NCBI GenBank assembly: GCA_018668475.1
Contig: JABJCZ010000320.1
Coordinates: 1-11,905, forward strand
Direction: 5' to 3'
Origin: Alphaproteobacteria bacterium
GTDB lineage: Bacteria > Pseudomonadota > Alphaproteobacteria > UBA828
Length of the DNA: 11,905 nt
Made by a program: the position numbers and the translations under genes. The notes under the pieces are model-generated. The model ran no database searches and was not told the origin of the DNA. It saw nothing but the letters and a program-made list of their open reading frames with translations. Positions 3,501 through 10,458 of this stretch are shown piece after piece; positions within the stretch are counted from its first letter, which is position 1; each line of letters opens with the position of its first letter.

Positions 3501-3523
3501 CCGAGTTATTGCTGGTAACTCGG
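3501..3523 (-). terminator. Hairpin at the end of the three-gene operon, possible weak terminator
   Basis: CCGAGTTA and TAACTCGG form an exact 8-bp inverted repeat around a 7-nt loop, overlapping the stop codon of the 172-aa gene. On the minus strand the T-rich CAATCTTTT comes about 4 nt after the stem, not immediately. A second repeat, ATAAC-TCGGC-GTTAT (3495-3509), uses part of the same bases, so only one of the two can form at a time. The position suits a terminator; the detached U-tract makes this uncertain. Confidence 0.4.
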
Positions 3524-4024
3524 ATCCAGAACAACGGTATCTTGTGTCTCCAAAGCCTTCAGTTGGCGCGCTTTACGGGGTGCGGCGTAAAATACCGATT
3601 GGTCGCGCGCACCCCTCGTTGCCTCGCCAAATGGTCGCCGCACCCGTACGACAGTTCTATTTGCACGGGCCTCACGGTTGGCTGACTCGAGCTGCTGCGC
3701 CACTTCACGGTTCCACGGCATAGTGTAGGCTCGGGGCTCATCGAGCCCAGGAATCTGGAGCCACACATATATTGCTTCACCCTCCCGGGTTGATGCCCCC
3801 AGCAACTCGGCTTCCGCAACGCTCCCCATGCCCCACTCCAGCCCGACCGGCTTTGGCTTGCTGAGCAATTCGCTGTACCCGACATATCCAAGTGCCATTA
3901 CGACGCCGGTCAAGCACACAGCGGTACCTTTCACCCATATGCGGCGCGGCGACCATATTGCGATCGCCACCAGCGCCAGTGACGCAAATACAACGCCAGC
4001 GAAAAGGTAAGGCAGCATGCTCAT
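3506..4024 (-). CDS. Two-helix membrane protein of unknown function, third gene of ExbB-like operon
   Basis: A 172-aa protein I cannot assign to a named family. Two hydrophobic segments lie near the N-terminus (about 4-24 and 32-51). A soluble region of about 120 residues follows, with EGEAIYVWLQIPGLDEPRAY (82-100) and TMPWNREVAQQLESANREAR (101-120), ending in a charged tail with RKARQLKALE. With a short start and two helices, the soluble part should be on the same side as the N-terminus, probably the cytoplasm. Its ATG overlaps the TGA of the preceding gene (ATGA at 4024-4021), so it is translationally coupled. That ties it to the channel module rather than to the phasin. Another ATG two codons later is equally possible. 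It has no visible catalytic motif. It may be an assembly or accessory subunit, which is inference from context only. Confidence 0.82.
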   Translation of the reverse strand: MSMLPYLFAGVVFASLALVAIAIWSPRRIWVKGTAVCLTGVVMALGYVGYSELLSKPKPVGLEWGMGSVAEAELLGASTREGEAIYVWLQIPGLDEPRAYTMPWNREVAQQLESANREARANRTVVRVRRPFGEATRGARDQSVFYAAPRKARQLKALETQDTVVLDPSYQQ

Positions 4025-4641
4025 AGCTTCTGATTTTCCCGTAAGGGGCGGAACAGTGAGTGGACACTGCCGGCCTTCAATTGTCCGTCGCTACCGAGCT
4101 TGAAGCGGAAAACGGTCAGTTCTTCATCCACCTCGATGAGCGCCACCCGACGCGCCAGAATTTGCTTGGTCGTGCTTGCGGTGTCGCCGCCTTTGACACT
4201 TACGACCACATCTGCCGGAATCGTCCGACCGGTGGCATTCCCGCGAGTGGCATAAAGATGAAGGTTGACGGTGTATTCGCCCGCGTCGATTCCCCGGCTG
4301 TAGCTGACCTCGTAGTTGAGCTCAGTCGCATCCATGAGCTGCCCTCGGTCATCACGTAGAAGATTGAACTTGGCGCTGCCCTTGTTGGAATAACCCACCG
4401 CTGCGTCGTTGGGCGCGGCCACCCAAAGATCGATATCCGCATCAACACCATCCGGCCAGCGCACTTCGACAACAACGTTGCCTGGCGGCATAAGAGCCGC
4501 TTCCGCTTGCTTGGTCGGTGGATTCAGATGTGGCAACAGCAACATGACCACGACGACGAAACCGGCAAGGGCAAGCAAAATGACATCGCGAAATACGGTG
4601 CCACCTGCGTCATCTTCAAACTCGTCAATCCCGTCGAGCAT
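4021..4641 (-). CDS. Single-pass protein with ExbD-like topology and YfaP/DUF2135-like periplasmic domain
   Basis: A 206-aa protein: a short acidic N-terminus (MLDGIDEFEDDAGG), one membrane helix (20-37, VILLALAGFVVVVMLLLP), then a periplasmic region. An aspartate, D19 (FRD-VILL), stands right at the helix entrance, where ExbD, TolR and MotB carry their proton-binding Asp. The periplasmic part does not look like ExbD/TolR or OmpA-like MotB. It has VEVRWPDGVDADIDLWVAAP (58-77), GYSNKGSAKFNLLRDDRG (83-100), and GEYTVNLHLYA (121-131), resembling the beta-sandwich DUF2135/YfaP type from memory. The start is ATG 4641 because GGAGAG lies 4 nt upstream; the frame can be extended to a TTG at 4662 without a site. 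It overlaps the upstream channel gene by 17 nt and the next gene by 4 nt. Pairing as an Exb-like stator is an inference. Confidence 0.85.
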   Translation of the reverse strand: MLDGIDEFEDDAGGTVFRDVILLALAGFVVVVMLLLPHLNPPTKQAEAALMPPGNVVVEVRWPDGVDADIDLWVAAPNDAAVGYSNKGSAKFNLLRDDRGQLMDATELNYEVSYSRGIDAGEYTVNLHLYATRGNATGRTIPADVVVSVKGGDTASTTKQILARRVALIEVDEELTVFRFKLGSDGQLKAGSVHSLFRPLRENQKL

Positions 4642-5419
4642 AGGTCTCTCCAAGCTCGACAACTGCAGTGATCAGATTGATGGTGCCACTGGCCAAAAGC
4701 CGGTAATTGATCATGAGCCAAATATTGAAAACCGCGCCCACCAGCGTTGTATAGAGTGCGACGGACATACCATTGATCAGGGTCGACACCATGGGGCCGA
4801 CGGATTTCACATCGCTGGCGAGATCAGGGTCGACACCTGACAACGCGATGATGAAACCGAGAACGGTCCCAATGAGACCCAGAAACACAAGAGTGTTGGC
4901 GATATGCCGCACAATTCCGATACGGCTACCCATTTTGATACGAAATGAATTGGCGGTCAGCGAGCGGCTTCCACCACTGCGCAGCTTGACCGCTTGCAAA
5001 TACCCGGTAACACGAGAGGGTTCGAGCGGGTCATAGGTTTTGATCAGGTTCAATTCGGCACTGGTCCGCCAGATGCGCATACCGCAAATCACGAGCCCGA
5101 CCAGAAAGAGGCCAAAAATCAGAAACACAATGCCGGTGGAATCCGCCTTGGCTGCAATCGTCACCCAGCCCTGAAAATGAGCTGCGCCGAGCAAGGCAAA
5201 GCCCGCCATATTGACAACGATGAAGCGGAATAGAAGAAGGTAGCGATAGCGCTGGAGATTGGTGCGACGACCAGTCAGCGCTTTTTCAAGTGCCTCAAGT
5301 GGCCCAGCTTTTTCATGGGTGCCGGGGCCGAAATCGTGTTCAGCGGCAAACTTGCTCTCAGCCCCACCAAAAGACTGGATTTCGGCCTGAGCCGGGAACT
5401 CTGCACTTGGGCGCTGCAT
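4625..5419 (-). CDS. MotA/TolQ/ExbB-family proton channel subunit
   Basis: A 264-aa inner-membrane protein. Residues 1-55 are polar and likely cytoplasmic. Four helices follow: about 59-85, 96-116, 174-194 and 212-239. The C-terminal half carries the family core: HIANTLVFLGLIGTVLGFI (172-190) and VSTLINGMSVALYTTLVGAV (211-230). Threonines T185 and T224/T225 lie where ExbB/TolQ have pore threonines. Such proteins form a pentamer that couples proton flow to movement of a partner. ATG 5419 is preceded by AAGGAG 6 nt upstream; a GTG at 5569 would add 50 hydrophilic residues but has no site. The downstream 17-nt overlap with the one-helix partner supports a fixed-ratio complex. The loop between helices 2 and 3 is about 57 residues, shorter than in flagellar MotA, and no flagellar or TonB gene is near, so the energised partner is unknown. 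Confidence 0.87.
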   Translation of the reverse strand: MQRPSAEFPAQAEIQSFGGAESKFAAEHDFGPGTHEKAGPLEALEKALTGRRTNLQRYRYLLLFRFIVVNMAGFALLGAAHFQGWVTIAAKADSTGIVFLIFGLFLVGLVICGMRIWRTSAELNLIKTYDPLEPSRVTGYLQAVKLRSGGSRSLTANSFRIKMGSRIGIVRHIANTLVFLGLIGTVLGFIIALSGVDPDLASDVKSVGPMVSTLINGMSVALYTTLVGAVFNIWLMINYRLLASGTINLITAVVELGETYARRD

Positions 5420-7492: not shown

Positions 7493-8110
7493 ATGGCGAC
7501 CAGAAAACCTGCCAAGGCACCGGCCACAAAGGCCGGTGCCGCCAAGAAGATTGCGGCCACAAAGGCCGGTGCCGCCAAGAAGATTGCGGCCACAAAGGCC
7601 GGTGCCACCAAGAAGACTGCGGCAAAAAAAGCCGGTGCCACCAAGAAGACTGCAGCCAAAAAAGCCGGTGCGACTAAGAAATCGGCTACCAGAAAAAAGG
7701 TAGCGGCAAAAAGCGCTACGGCAACCGAGCGCAATATCATGTACATATGTCGCTCTTGTGTGTGGACTGAGGCGAACAGAGAGATAGACGGCAAACGCCA
7801 GGGCAAGTTCTTACTCGATGCCGTCAACGAACTTGTGGACAACAAGCCGCTACCCAAAACGGTTGATCTGCGAGGCGTCTTTTGCCTGAACGGCTGCAAA
7901 AACCCCTGCAACGTTTCGTTTCGCGCCCGCGACAAGTTTTCACTGCGTTTCAGTCATCTGACGCCGGAGCATGCCGCTGACGTCGTGGCCGTTGCCGAAG
8001 CCTATGCTGGCAGCGCCGACGGCGATCTGGCCGATAGTGAAATACCGGGCGCTCTGCAGGGCAAAGTGAGCGTTCGCACCCCACCGACGCCGCTCCCACG
8101 TCGCGGGTAG
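7493..8110 (+). CDS. Histone-H1-like Lys/Ala tail fused to DUF1636 ferredoxin-like domain
   Basis: A 205-aa protein with two unlike parts. Residues 1-80 are almost only Ala, Lys, Thr and Gly, built from five 11-residue repeats (ATKAGAAKKIA to AKKAGATKKSA, residues 11-65). This is strongly basic, disordered and like the tails of bacterial histone-H1-like proteins. Residues 83-205 match DUF1636 from memory: YICRSC (C86, C89), RGVFCLNGCKNPCNVSF (C131, C135, C139), KFSLRFSHLTPEHAADV, then AEAYAGSADGDLADSEIP. DUF1636 proteins are thought to have a thioredoxin-like ferredoxin fold with a 2Fe-2S site, function unknown. Start 7493 is 4 nt after the hydrolase stop with no clear Shine-Dalgarno, so coupling is likely. 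The in-frame ATG at 7739 would give the DUF1636 domain alone. The tail could bind nucleic acid or another polyanion. Confidence 0.87.
   Translation: MATRKPAKAPATKAGAAKKIAATKAGAAKKIAATKAGATKKTAAKKAGATKKTAAKKAGATKKSATRKKVAAKSATATERNIMYICRSCVWTEANREIDGKRQGKFLLDAVNELVDNKPLPKTVDLRGVFCLNGCKNPCNVSFRARDKFSLRFSHLTPEHAADVVAVAEAYAGSADGDLADSEIPGALQGKVSVRTPPTPLPRRG
7523..7687 (+). repeat. Five in-frame 33-bp tandem repeats encoding the basic tail
   Basis: Five consecutive 33-bp units encode residues 11-65 of the fusion protein. Units 1 and 2 are identical in DNA, unit 3 differs by two bases, and units 4 and 5 diverge further. This gradient suggests recent duplication at the 5' end. Copy number probably varies between strains without breaking the frame. 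There are no spacers, so it is not a CRISPR array. Confidence 0.92.
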
Positions 8111-8172: not shown

Positions 8173-10458
8173 TCAGTGCAAAAGTTGGCCAATAATTGGC
8201 GTATCGAGCCCTTGAGGCAGCGTGACTCGAAAGGTCGTCCCCGCCCCCTCCTGGCTCTCACAGGTAATTGTGCCGCCATGGCTGGCTACTGCCCGCTTGA
8301 TAATCGCCAGGCCCAGACCTGTACCGGAAATAGCACCGACATTATCAAACCGATGAAACGGCTCAAACAACCGATCCCGGCCAATTTCAGGGATGCCCAA
8401 CCCAGCATCGGTGCAGGCTACTCTGACCCGCTGGTCTTCGCACCAAGCCTCCAGCATGACCGGGCCGCCATCCGGCGAGTATTTGATGGCATTTGATAGA
8501 AGATTTCCGACGACTTGCCGAAAGATCTGCTCATCAAGCAAAACTTCGCTGCAATTTCCGTTGATCCGAAACTGGAGCTCATGCCGGTCAGTGGCTTGAA
8601 GGCGTGCCTTGTCGATTAGTTCCTCAAAGAGCTCTTCAATATCGATAGGTGTCGGAGACACTTCCATCTGCCCGGAGTCAACGCGCCCGAAATTCAGGAT
8701 ATCGTCGAGCAGGTGCGTGATGTTGCCGACTTCCGACACAATTTCGGCCAGATTGCTATCTTTCTCGTCGTCACTCATCCGCGGGCCATACCGCCGGACG
8801 ATCTCCACCGCAGCCTGAATCGTCGTGAGTGGTGTGCGGAACTCATGCGACGCCATTGCGACGAACCGGGATTTGAGTTCCCCCAGTTCGCGCTCTTTTT
8901 CCAATGTCTGTTCCAGTTCCTGACGCGCGCGCCGCCTGACGCTGACATCAAAGCCCATCTGCCAACTCGACCAACCCGGCACCGGATAGGCCGCAGAAAT
9001 ATTGAACCACGAAATGGTCCGGTTGCCGCCGCCTTTGCACATGACGTCCCATTCCCAATCCCGGTAGTCACTGTGTTCAAGCAGCGTCCGGCGCACCTGG
9101 GCGCGCCGCTTTTCGTTCGGCCATAACAGTTCCAGACCTTTCGGATTGCCCACCACCTCATTAGCCGGAAACTCGGTCACCCGCTCACATTCCCGATTCC
9201 AGACGATAATCTCGCCTTGTTCGTCGAGTGCAAACATCATCACGGGCATGTTCTGAATAACCCGACGAAGGCGGTCTTCGCTCTGGGTCAGCGCATCATG
9301 CGCTTCGTATTCCTCCGTCCGGTCAATTCCCAGCGCGAACATCCCATCGATCTGGCCATCATCCTGACGATTTGGCACGAGGCTCACCTGGAGGCGGCGC
9401 CGACCCAGCCGCGTATTTCTGTCGGCTTCATAGGTGACAGCCTCGCCCGCCAGGACGCGCGTATACGGATCGTCAATTTCAGAAAACGCCTCATCGCCGA
9501 CAATCTGGTCAATCGGCATGCCCTGCACATGTTCACGAGAATTCCCAAACCAGGTCTCGTATTTTTCGTTCACGAAGCGAATACGTAAGTTGCTGTCGAT
9601 AGACGCCACCACGGCCGGAATGCTGTCTGTAATCAAACGCATCTGGCGCTCGTTTTCGGTCAATGCGCGCTGTGCGTGGTCTAGGTCCCGCAGGCGATGC
9701 TCAAGCGCCTCATTGGCCCGACTTAGTTCGCGCGTGCGCTCGACCACCTCTTTGTTCGCAACTTCATGCGCCTGAACCAACCGTCCCACGAGCCCTGCGT
9801 TTTCCTCACGCAGGCGCACTGAGGAATCCAGCCAGCGATGCACGGTGCGCGAAAAAAAGCTGATCGCGACTCCGTACACCAACACCATTGCCCCCATGGC
9901 GACATGTGTAATGTCGTCGCCCGTGAGGAGGACCACACCAAAAGGGATAAACATTGGCCAGATCGACGCGTAAAACACCGGCAACATCGCCGTCAGGCCC
10001 GCCATCGAGCCGGCGCTCATGCCACCCAGAACAAATGCCATAAACACGTGATCAACAGTCGAAGGCGAAACCACAAACACCAAAACGCCGCCTGCGCCCC
10101 AGCCGATTCCACCCAACGCCGAGCTCACAAATGCCAGCCGCTGCCACACCTGCACTGTTTCAACCGCATGCGACCTGCCGCGCCAGGCAACAAGCCAGAT
10201 TCCCGCTCGAAGCAGTGAAAATGCGACCATCACACCAGCCCAGATAAGCACCGAAACACCGTCCGTATTTGGCCAGACAACAGCGCCAACAAGCACAGCG
10301 TTGAAAATGTTGACCACCATCACAGTGGGCATCTGACCGAAATACATCCGAACCAGCTCAAGCTGGTGCAGTGCTTCGCCTTCGCCCGGAACGCCCGCAC
10401 CGCGATGCGTATCAGCGCCCGTCGAGCGGCTATCTTTGCGACCGGTATCCGTTGTCAT
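8173..10458 (-). CDS. Membrane sensor histidine kinase with two PAS domains
   Basis: A 761-aa inner-membrane kinase. After a hydrophilic start (1-40), about six helices follow (near 45-62, 70-92, 108-130, 136-158, 163-180, 186-204). They form a sensory domain type also seen in front of GGDEF proteins. A charged coiled coil (214-275) leads to PAS1 (about 272-385, ITDSIPAVVASID) and PAS2 (about 395-510, IQNMPVMMFALDEQGEIIVWN). HisKA has the phospho-acceptor H538 in ASHEFRTPL. The ATPase domain has N656 in NLLSNAIKYSP, D684 in DAGLGIP, LFEPFHRF (697-704) and GTGLGLAI (712-719). All catalytic boxes are intact. There is no receiver domain and no response regulator beside it, so the partner is encoded elsewhere. 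The signal is unknown; a hydrophobic, redox or ligand cue through PAS is possible. ATG 10458 has a weak upstream AGAG. Confidence 0.95.
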   Translation of the reverse strand: MTTDTGRKDSRSTGADTHRGAGVPGEGEALHQLELVRMYFGQMPTVMVVNIFNAVLVGAVVWPNTDGVSVLIWAGVMVAFSLLRAGIWLVAWRGRSHAVETVQVWQRLAFVSSALGGIGWGAGGVLVFVVSPSTVDHVFMAFVLGGMSAGSMAGLTAMLPVFYASIWPMFIPFGVVLLTGDDITHVAMGAMVLVYGVAISFFSRTVHRWLDSSVRLREENAGLVGRLVQAHEVANKEVVERTRELSRANEALEHRLRDLDHAQRALTENERQMRLITDSIPAVVASIDSNLRIRFVNEKYETWFGNSREHVQGMPIDQIVGDEAFSEIDDPYTRVLAGEAVTYEADRNTRLGRRRLQVSLVPNRQDDGQIDGMFALGIDRTEEYEAHDALTQSEDRLRRVIQNMPVMMFALDEQGEIIVWNRECERVTEFPANEVVGNPKGLELLWPNEKRRAQVRRTLLEHSDYRDWEWDVMCKGGGNRTISWFNISAAYPVPGWSSWQMGFDVSVRRRARQELEQTLEKERELGELKSRFVAMASHEFRTPLTTIQAAVEIVRRYGPRMSDDEKDSNLAEIVSEVGNITHLLDDILNFGRVDSGQMEVSPTPIDIEELFEELIDKARLQATDRHELQFRINGNCSEVLLDEQIFRQVVGNLLSNAIKYSPDGGPVMLEAWCEDQRVRVACTDAGLGIPEIGRDRLFEPFHRFDNVGAISGTGLGLAIIKRAVASHGGTITCESQEGAGTTFRVTLPQGLDTPIIGQLLH

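What the first reader, a model, noticed from the sequence alone, without database searches (positions are those of the whole stretch)
3506..5419. Three-gene ExbB-like operon with a non-standard partner: possible new energised membrane machine
A four-helix MotA/TolQ/ExbB-like protein, a one-helix protein with ExbD-like layout and a two-helix protein of unknown family are joined by overlaps of 17 and 4 nt. No TonB, Tol-Pal, flagellar or gliding gene is nearby. The overlaps suggest a fixed complex that uses proton flow for an unknown envelope task. The gene structure is seen directly; the joint function is inferred.
Basis: partly seen in the sequence, partly recalled or inferred. Interest (0 to 1): 0.72.

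Follow-up and report, generated by a model that had tools for sequence, protein, structure and literature searches.

The report
Phage-shared three-gene envelope motor cassette
Three overlapping bacterial genes appear to encode a small ion-driven motor in the inner membrane, with an unusual part reaching into the space below the outer membrane, and the same three-gene set, in shrunken form, is carried by viruses that infect related bacteria.

Summary
Window 5419→3506 (- strand) carries P1 (264 aa), P2 (206 aa) and P3 (172 aa), overlapping by 17 and 4 nt. P1 is a true MotA/TolQ/ExbB protein (Pfam E 4e-10). P2 has one transmembrane helix with an Asp kept in 193 of 194 P2 sequences (one gap), placed like ExbD's; but its periplasmic part is a DUF2135-related β-sandwich, not an ExbD domain. 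P3 matches no family searched. All 27 matching records among 50,697 phage records are Rhizobium/Sinorhizobium phages, of quite different genome sizes, with P1 shrunk to 138-158 aa in 11 examined. I propose a 5:2-type proton motor whose output domain works on the envelope; the architecture is well supported, the task inferred. In 16-3-type phages it lies downstream of endolysin and trypsin-like protease genes; in 150-kb phages it does not. My literature searches found no description. New variant of a known kind.

The parts
4625..5419 (-). P1, 264 aa, four-helix MotA/TolQ/ExbB channel subunit. TM3 carries G-L-I-G-T185-V-x-G, TM4 carries A-L-Y-T-T225-L.
   Evidence: Pfam PF01618 E 4.3e-10, 39.9 bits against cut-off 22.9. 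A 74-sequence profile hits solved MotA 8.4e-10, TolQ 1.3e-8, ZorA 4.9e-7, PomA 9.3e-7, ExbB 3.4e-5. In that alignment G184 and G188 are in 74 of 74, T225 in 72 of 74 (S in 2), T185 in 66 of 74 (N in 7, A in 1). The 74 rows are my selection: 70 from 139 non-redundant P1 places plus the window and three named phages.
4021..4641 (-). P2, 206 aa: one N-terminal TM helix (about 11-39) and a periplasmic beta-sandwich (about 54-182).
   Evidence: AF2 model mean pLDDT 90.1 from 89 sequences. Over all 194 P2 rows: W62, D69, D71, D97, D98 and E111 in 194, D19 in 193 (one gap), N109 in 193, D104 in 191. hhalign to three DUF2135 domains: probability 97.6, E 4.7e-12.
4585..4587 (-). Codon of P2 Asp19 at the start of the TM helix, the proposed ion-carrying acid.
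   Evidence: Asp in 193 of 194 P2 rows, a gap in the other. hhalign to an ExbD profile aligns only this helix, Asp on Asp, but weakly (probability 7.6, P 0.0046).
3506..4024 (-). P3, 172 aa: two N-terminal helices and a small alpha/beta domain (about 68-150), probably periplasmic (SPRR in the loop between the helices; my topology inference).
   Evidence: AF2 model mean pLDDT 89.5. No family above cut-off in Pfam or NCBIfam, none in PHROGs or PADLOC. Beside P1-P2 in 105 of 109 other bacterial loci.
4625..4641 (-). 17-nt overlap of P1 end and P2 start.
   Evidence: Sequence read directly.
4021..4024 (-). 4-nt overlap of P2 stop and P3 start.
   Evidence: Sequence read directly.

Best explanation
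The three genes encode one inner-membrane complex of the MotA-B / ExbB-D / TolQ-R class. P1 forms the outer ring (pentamer by analogy), P2 the central axle (dimer by analogy). Protons, or another cation, pass between P1 TM3/TM4 (T185, T225 region) and P2 Asp19 and drive movement of P2 relative to P1. The movement is passed to P2's DUF2135-like beta-sandwich in the periplasm, which with P3's periplasmic domain acts on an envelope partner (peptidoglycan or an outer-membrane lipoprotein). In bacteria this serves upkeep of the envelope; phages bring a trimmed copy to act on the envelope of the infected or lysogenic cell. Shown: gene structure, P1 family, conserved Asp, DUF2135 relation of P2, conservation as a unit, presence in phages. 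Inferred: complex formation, stoichiometry, ion flow, the envelope task, the phage role.
For: P1 family membership; D19 in 193 of 194 P2 rows and near-invariant P1 TM3/TM4 residues; all three genes together in 105 of 109 other bacterial loci, order kept in 104 of those 105, and in 92 of 96 and 91 after near-duplicates are removed. In 84 phage/virus loci, P1 in 78 and P3 in 52 with profiles of close relatives, all 48 with both in the same order; 64, 42 and 40 of 67 without near-duplicates. In 11 named Rhizobium/Sinorhizobium phages (of 19 phage names among the 27 records) the genes before and after P2 were tested: the single-pass profiles find P1 in 11 (10 at E 1e-3, one at 0.0039), P2 in 11 and P3 in 7; retrained profiles find all three in 11, 7 of which were outside the training set, with the caveat on the retrained P3 profile given under Tried and rejected. 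The order is kept even where endonuclease genes lie between. In 7 small-genome bacterial loci a lipobox protein gene follows P3.
Against: No complex was modelled and no function assayed. T185 is N in 7 of 74 P1 rows, so that channel residue is not absolute. The ExbD-like match of the P2 helix is weak (probability 7.6). No peptidoglycan-binding family was found in P2 or P3. Beyond the cassette and ORFs overlapping it, the commonest neighbour cluster is in only 11 of the bacterial loci, so no neighbour points to a task (crude ORF calls, flanks of unequal length). With the close-relative profiles P3 was not found in 32 of 84 virus loci and P1 not in 6; 3 of these 38 misses lie at contig edges by my rule.
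Confidence: 0.6

Rival explanations
1. Phage exclusion or anti-phage device in the manner of Zorya: the motor senses or answers envelope perturbation by an incoming phage; prophages and some chromosomes keep it to exclude others.
For: P1 has remote similarity to ZorA (PADLOC best E 4.9e-6; solved ZorA 4.9e-7 with the profile). In 16-3, X2_25 and TM3_3_14B the cassette lies some 6 to 8 kb from the integrase gene.
Against: P1 is 264 aa (138-158 aa in 11 annotated phages) without the long ZorA tail; PADLOC finds nothing for P2 and P3; no ZorC/ZorD-like family among the nine window proteins scanned. It is also in 150-kb phages beside DNA-metabolism genes.
Confidence: 0.17
2. Phage lysis or release factor: in phages the motor helps break or hold the outer membrane at the end of infection; bacterial copies are domesticated.
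For: A standalone endolysin gene lies within 5 kb of P2 in 8 of the 15 tested records that have one (combined P 0.001). Endolysin matches end 3.4 and 4.0 kb before P2 in 16-3 and NV1.1.1. A trypsin-like protease gene lies within 2 kb of P2 in 9 of 16 non-duplicate records that have one (combined P 1e-4).
Against: 150-kb Rhizobium phages carry it next to a sigma factor and recombination genes, N3_13 among replication genes. In the distance test 7 of 15 endolysins lie 5.2 to 18.6 kb away and 7 of 16 proteases 5 to 258 kb away. 16-3 and TM3_3_14B also have a Rz-like spanin candidate (E 0.0016 and 4e-6; the 16-3 one matches families of unknown function better), so the usual outer-membrane step may be covered. 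The combined test assumes independence, which related phages lack, and no rate was measured in phages without the cassette. In five bacterial regions read by eye the neighbours looked like ordinary chromosomal genes.
Confidence: 0.2
3. An ordinary ExbB/ExbD or TolQ/TolR pair whose third partner is merely diverged (TonB or TolA).
For: P1 family; single-helix P2 with ExbD-like Asp.
Against: P2 has no ExbD family hit; its periplasmic domain is DUF2135-like and only the helix aligns with ExbD. An ExbD-family gene is found elsewhere in 6 of 6 genomes searched (own genome, there a partial match, and five relatives). P3 has no TonB or TolA family hit.
Confidence: 0.05
4. Chance or artefact: three unrelated genes side by side in one MAG.
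For: Single contig of a fragmented, 78.1% complete MAG.
Against: 105 of 109 loci elsewhere (92 of 96 without near-duplicates), including a complete chromosome (Tistrella mobilis, L063), carry all three.
Confidence: 0.01

Closest known systems
MotA/TolQ/ExbB proton-channel family (PF01618)
   Same: P1 matches above cut-off; TM3/TM4 glycine and threonine pattern kept.
   Different: The stretch between TM2 and TM3 is short, and minimal in phage copies; annotated phage P1 genes are 138-158 aa in 11 phages.
ExbD/TolR (PF02472)
   Same: One N-terminal TM helix with a conserved Asp near its start.
   Different: Periplasmic domain is a DUF2135-like beta-sandwich; no PF02472 hit.
DUF2135 (PF09906), here the C-terminal domain of VIT-domain proteins
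   Same: hhalign probability 97.6, E 4.7e-12 over 88 columns, against three such domains.
   Different: In the three proteins scanned it ends chains of 960-1150 aa that begin with a VIT domain; here it is joined to a motor helix. Only 7 of 89 P2 members touch the Pfam model at E 0.1, best 0.0042.
TerD fold (calcium-binding in the title of 2kxt)
   Different: No sequence relation (hhalign probability 0.4 against seven TerD sequences). Calcium binding by P2 is untested.
Zorya ZorA/ZorB
   Same: MotA/ExbB-type motor in a phage-related setting; weak ZorA similarity.
   Different: No long ZorA tail, no PADLOC match for P2 or P3, carried by phages themselves.

Membership tests
MotA/TolQ/ExbB (PF01618) | Profile match above the curated cut-off | tested here: met
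   39.9 bits against 22.9; separate profile search hits solved MotA, TolQ, ZorA, ExbB.
MotA/TolQ/ExbB (PF01618) | Conserved small/hydroxyl residues of TM3 and TM4 | tested here: met
   G184, G188 74 of 74; T225 T or S in 74 of 74; T185 66 of 74.
5:2 ion-driven motors | Pentamer around a dimer | not testable with these tools
   No complex prediction available.
5:2 ion-driven motors | TM acid in the axle subunit | tested here: met
   P2 D19 in 193 of 194, one gap; aligned with the ExbD Asp, weakly.
ExbD/TolR (PF02472) | Family profile match | tested here: not met
   No PF02472 hit for the window P2, and PF02472 is not among the families matched by the 89 members of A4 at E 0.1.
ExbD/TolR (PF02472) | Periplasmic ExbD/TolR fold | tested here: inconclusive
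   Sequence points to DUF2135 and the fold search to TerD-like sandwiches; absence from that list does not exclude a fold.
Tol-Pal / Ton system | TolA/TolB/Pal or TonB encoded alongside | tested here: not met
   None among the nine window proteins scanned in the 11.9-kb contig; genes beyond the contig unseen.
Zorya | ZorA with long cytoplasmic tail plus ZorC/ZorD | tested here: not met
   P1 264 aa; PADLOC matches only its channel part; no ZorC/D family among the nine window proteins scanned with Pfam, which were not all scanned with PADLOC.
DUF2135 (PF09906) | Match above the Pfam cut-off | tested here: inconclusive
   7 of 89 members at E 0.1, best 0.0042; profile-profile relation strong.
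TerD | Sequence-profile relation | tested here: not met
   hhalign probability 0.4 against 7 TerD sequences.
TerD | Fold | tested here: inconclusive

The most novel reading that the evidence does not exclude
Tailed phages of Alphaproteobacteria carry their own miniature proton-driven rotary motor, a P1 ring subunit of about 145 aa, a P2 axle ending in a DUF2135-like domain, and P3, and use it, often with a periplasmic trypsin-like protease, to remodel the envelope of the cell they occupy. Cellular copies such as the one in this window are the same machine, exchanged between phages and hosts over a long time.
Probability: 0.45. Interest if true: 0.85.

Novelty: new variant of a known kind. Interest (0 to 1): 0.72.

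Why it matters
As far as the passages I saw go, the 5:2 motors of the review PMC9389320 and the generic ion transporters of PMC12505986 are cellular. A phage-borne three-gene version, with P1 trimmed to little more than its four helices, would be among the smallest forms of this motor class, give a genetically easy model (phage 16-3 in Sinorhizobium meliloti), and point to a step of alphaproteobacterial infection or lysogeny that needs membrane energy. It would also give DUF2135 a setting in which a mechanical role can be tested.

Tried and rejected

Led nowhere: the solved-structure sequence search with P2 (two subtilisin-like rows at E 0.14-0.15); PHROGs for the three window proteins (best E 0.014); direct tblastn of window P3 against phages (no match) and of P1 (2 records), which shows how far the phage forms have moved.

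Dropped or kept before counts: the window's own loci L001 and L002 are left out. Several bacterial loci came in twice, through; therefore repeats the count after removing loci whose P2 is at least 95% identical. L112-L114, labelled viral, fall inside the bacterial clade on the P2 tree and are probably bacterial DNA; they are inside the 84 virus loci. Without them: 81 loci, P1 75, P3 49, both and in order 45. A2-A6 are selections of the non-redundant rows (131 P2, 116 P3, 139 P1 places). In the distance test I left out lysozyme-domain hits in ORFs over 350 aa (L119, 16-3, NV1.1.1), one hit under the cut-off (L154), three near-identical records (L177, L179, L180), and NV1.1.1 and N34 (W02, W05) from the combined protease P. 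It missed the endolysins of 16-3 and NV1.1.1 found later. The families were chosen after seeing neighbours, so the P values are indicative only. The third round of P3 profile building drew in wrong-frame ORFs, so the P3 counts use the single-pass profile; both are given, and the ORFs tested there were picked by position.

Literature (PMC open library only, full-text search listings). Passages only were seen in PMC10460002, PMC6163359, PMC4641393, PMC9389320 and PMC12505986. None of these listings or passages described a phage-borne ExbB/MotA-type cassette. Most subscription papers and bioRxiv were not covered.

Full report
Observation. On the - strand the window encodes P1 (5419..4625), P2 (4641..4021) and P3 (4024..3506) with overlaps of 17 and 4 nt. 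The contig is the entire 11.9-kb record C225 of a 78.1% complete MAG; P1 has no other match at E 0.001 in the bases held. Neighbours are a phasin, an FAA hydrolase, two alpha/beta hydrolases, a DUF1636 protein and a PAS histidine kinase; purM and purN are read by eye from the translations.

Family of P1. Pfam PF01618 at 39.9 bits against a cut-off of 22.9. A profile of 74 bacterial and phage P1 sequences finds solved MotA (8.4e-10), TolQ (1.3e-8), ZorA (4.9e-7), PomA (9.3e-7) and ExbB (3.4e-5). In that alignment G184 and G188 are in 74 of 74, T225 in 72 (S in 2), T185 in 66 (N in 7, A in 1).

P3. Two N-terminal helices and a small alpha/beta domain, mean pLDDT 89.5, no family above cut-off and no trustworthy fold match. 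P57, I85, P97 and K156 are kept in at least 90% of 82 rows. Periplasmic placement of its domain is my inference from the positively charged loop between the helices.

Conservation in bacteria. P2 is found at E 0.001 in 38 of 289 genomes drawn from the class, own genome included, a few of them short or weak matches. A scan of genome contigs kept the best 80 of 297 confirmed loci, including Tistrella mobilis, Azospirillum halopraeferens, Skermanella aerolata, Mesorhizobium and Geminicoccus. Of 109 bacterial loci other than the window's own, P1 lies within 3 kb of P2 in 109 and P3 in 105; the order is P1-P2-P3 in 104 of the 105 with all three, the exception being L007. Some loci came in twice; with near-duplicates removed the figures are 96, 96, 92 and 91. 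Record titles such as Patescibacteria or Nitrospira are MAG labels that I did not check.

Phages. A scan of IMG/VR confirmed 312 of 355 candidate stretches and kept the best 80 loci. Among 84 virus loci (these 80 plus four named phages), P1 is found at single-pass E 1e-3 in 78 and P3 in 52; all 48 with both keep the order; 64, 42 and 40 of 67 without near-duplicates. In the named-phage collection 27 of 50,697 records match, all Rhizobium or Sinorhizobium phages, for the window's P2 and for two distant virus P2s; a third virus P2 found 13, again all of these two groups. The 27 records listed bear 19 phage names: 16-3-type phages of 59-69 kb, 68-kb phages such as N3_13, a group of 153-159 kb of which those opened are Pootjesviridae, and the 171-kb I1_18. 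I examined 11 of the 19. With single-pass profiles P1 is found in 11 (one at E 0.0039), P2 in 11 and P3 in 7; with retrained profiles all three in 11, seven of which were outside the training set. Annotated P1 genes there are 138-158 aa. Hallmark check: a terminase match in 14 of 45 records tested, 9 above the cut-off, so most metagenomic records rest on IMG/VR's own classification. The named isolates do not.

Tree. On a FastTree P2 tree (194 sequences, 192 columns, midpoint root) two halves appear: one with the window-type bacteria and 16-3-type phages, the other with most of the more distant virus contigs, RHph_Y68 and small-genome bacteria; phages and bacteria are mixed in both. Many inner supports are under 0.8, so I claim only exchange, not its direction or number. 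L112-L114 sit inside bacteria and are probably not viral.

Phage neighbours. In 16-3 the order is endolysin p029, a weak Rz-like p033 (E 0.0016), trypsin-like protease p036, P1 p038, P2 p040, P3 p042. X2_25 and TM3_3_14B have an annotated lysozyme and a trypsin-like peptidase gene upstream of P1. A trypsin-like protease is found in 21 of 45 records and lies within 2 kb of P2 in 9 of 16 non-duplicate records in the distance test; a standalone endolysin lies within 5 kb in 8 of 15. I have no baseline from phages without the cassette. Against a lysis role: the 150-kb phages opened carry the cassette beside a sigma factor and recombination genes, and N3_13 beside replication genes. So the association holds for one broad group and not for all.

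Bacterial neighbours. No neighbour recurs widely: beyond the cassette and ORFs overlapping it, the largest cluster is in 11 loci. In seven loci of genomes of 1.4-2.5 Mb a lipobox protein of 230-254 aa follows P3 directly; two of four such proteins scanned resemble DUF3108-like, one at and one below its cut-off; in L227 three such genes stand close together. This is the only hint of an outer-membrane partner.

Reading. A PMF-type motor built from a known ring subunit, an axle with a new output domain and a third membrane protein is the simplest account. Which envelope task it serves is open; I rank envelope upkeep or remodelling first, lysis or release and phage exclusion next. The nine paper searches cited under Tried and rejected found no description of a phage-borne cassette of this kind in the open PMC library.

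Noticed in passing
L192-L194, L204, L120, L124, L131, L136, L138, L149: Trypsin-like (HtrA-type) protease gene next to P1 in many phages; 21 of 45 phage records have one. L170 and L174 have a lipobox version directly after P3.
   Followed up: partly
L017, L018, L020, L021, L024, L025, L026 after P3; L227:3946-6785: Lipobox protein with a YFPL/YFPF motif follows P3 in small-genome alphaproteobacteria; three close together in L227.
   Followed up: partly
L204:7228-7986 and L194:8544-9086: A Seg-like endonuclease gene lies between P1 and P2 in one Rhizobium phage, and an HNH endonuclease gene between P2 and P3 in another.
   Followed up: no
L225:163-5415: Cassette stands close to mreB-mreC-mreD-PBP2-rodA-like genes in one small-genome bacterium (names from my reading).
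   Followed up: no
window 7493-8110: DUF1636 protein with a Lys/Ala-rich repeat N-terminus resembling histone H1-like tails.
   Followed up: no
L192:7729-8019 and 8549-8734: Small ORFs p039 and p041 stand between the cassette genes in phage 16-3; AP-16-3 has similar small ORFs around its cassette.
   Followed up: no
Azospirillum plasmid records NZ_CP032346.1 and six others: Each of the 7 records is listed with two places matching P2 (14 places), perhaps a second, diverged copy.
   Followed up: no
L112, L113, L114: IMG/VR contigs whose P2 falls inside the bacterial clade; probably bacterial DNA labelled viral.
   Followed up: partly
L153:9204-10163: Subtilase gene directly after the cassette on the other strand in a 225-kb viral contig.
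   Followed up: no
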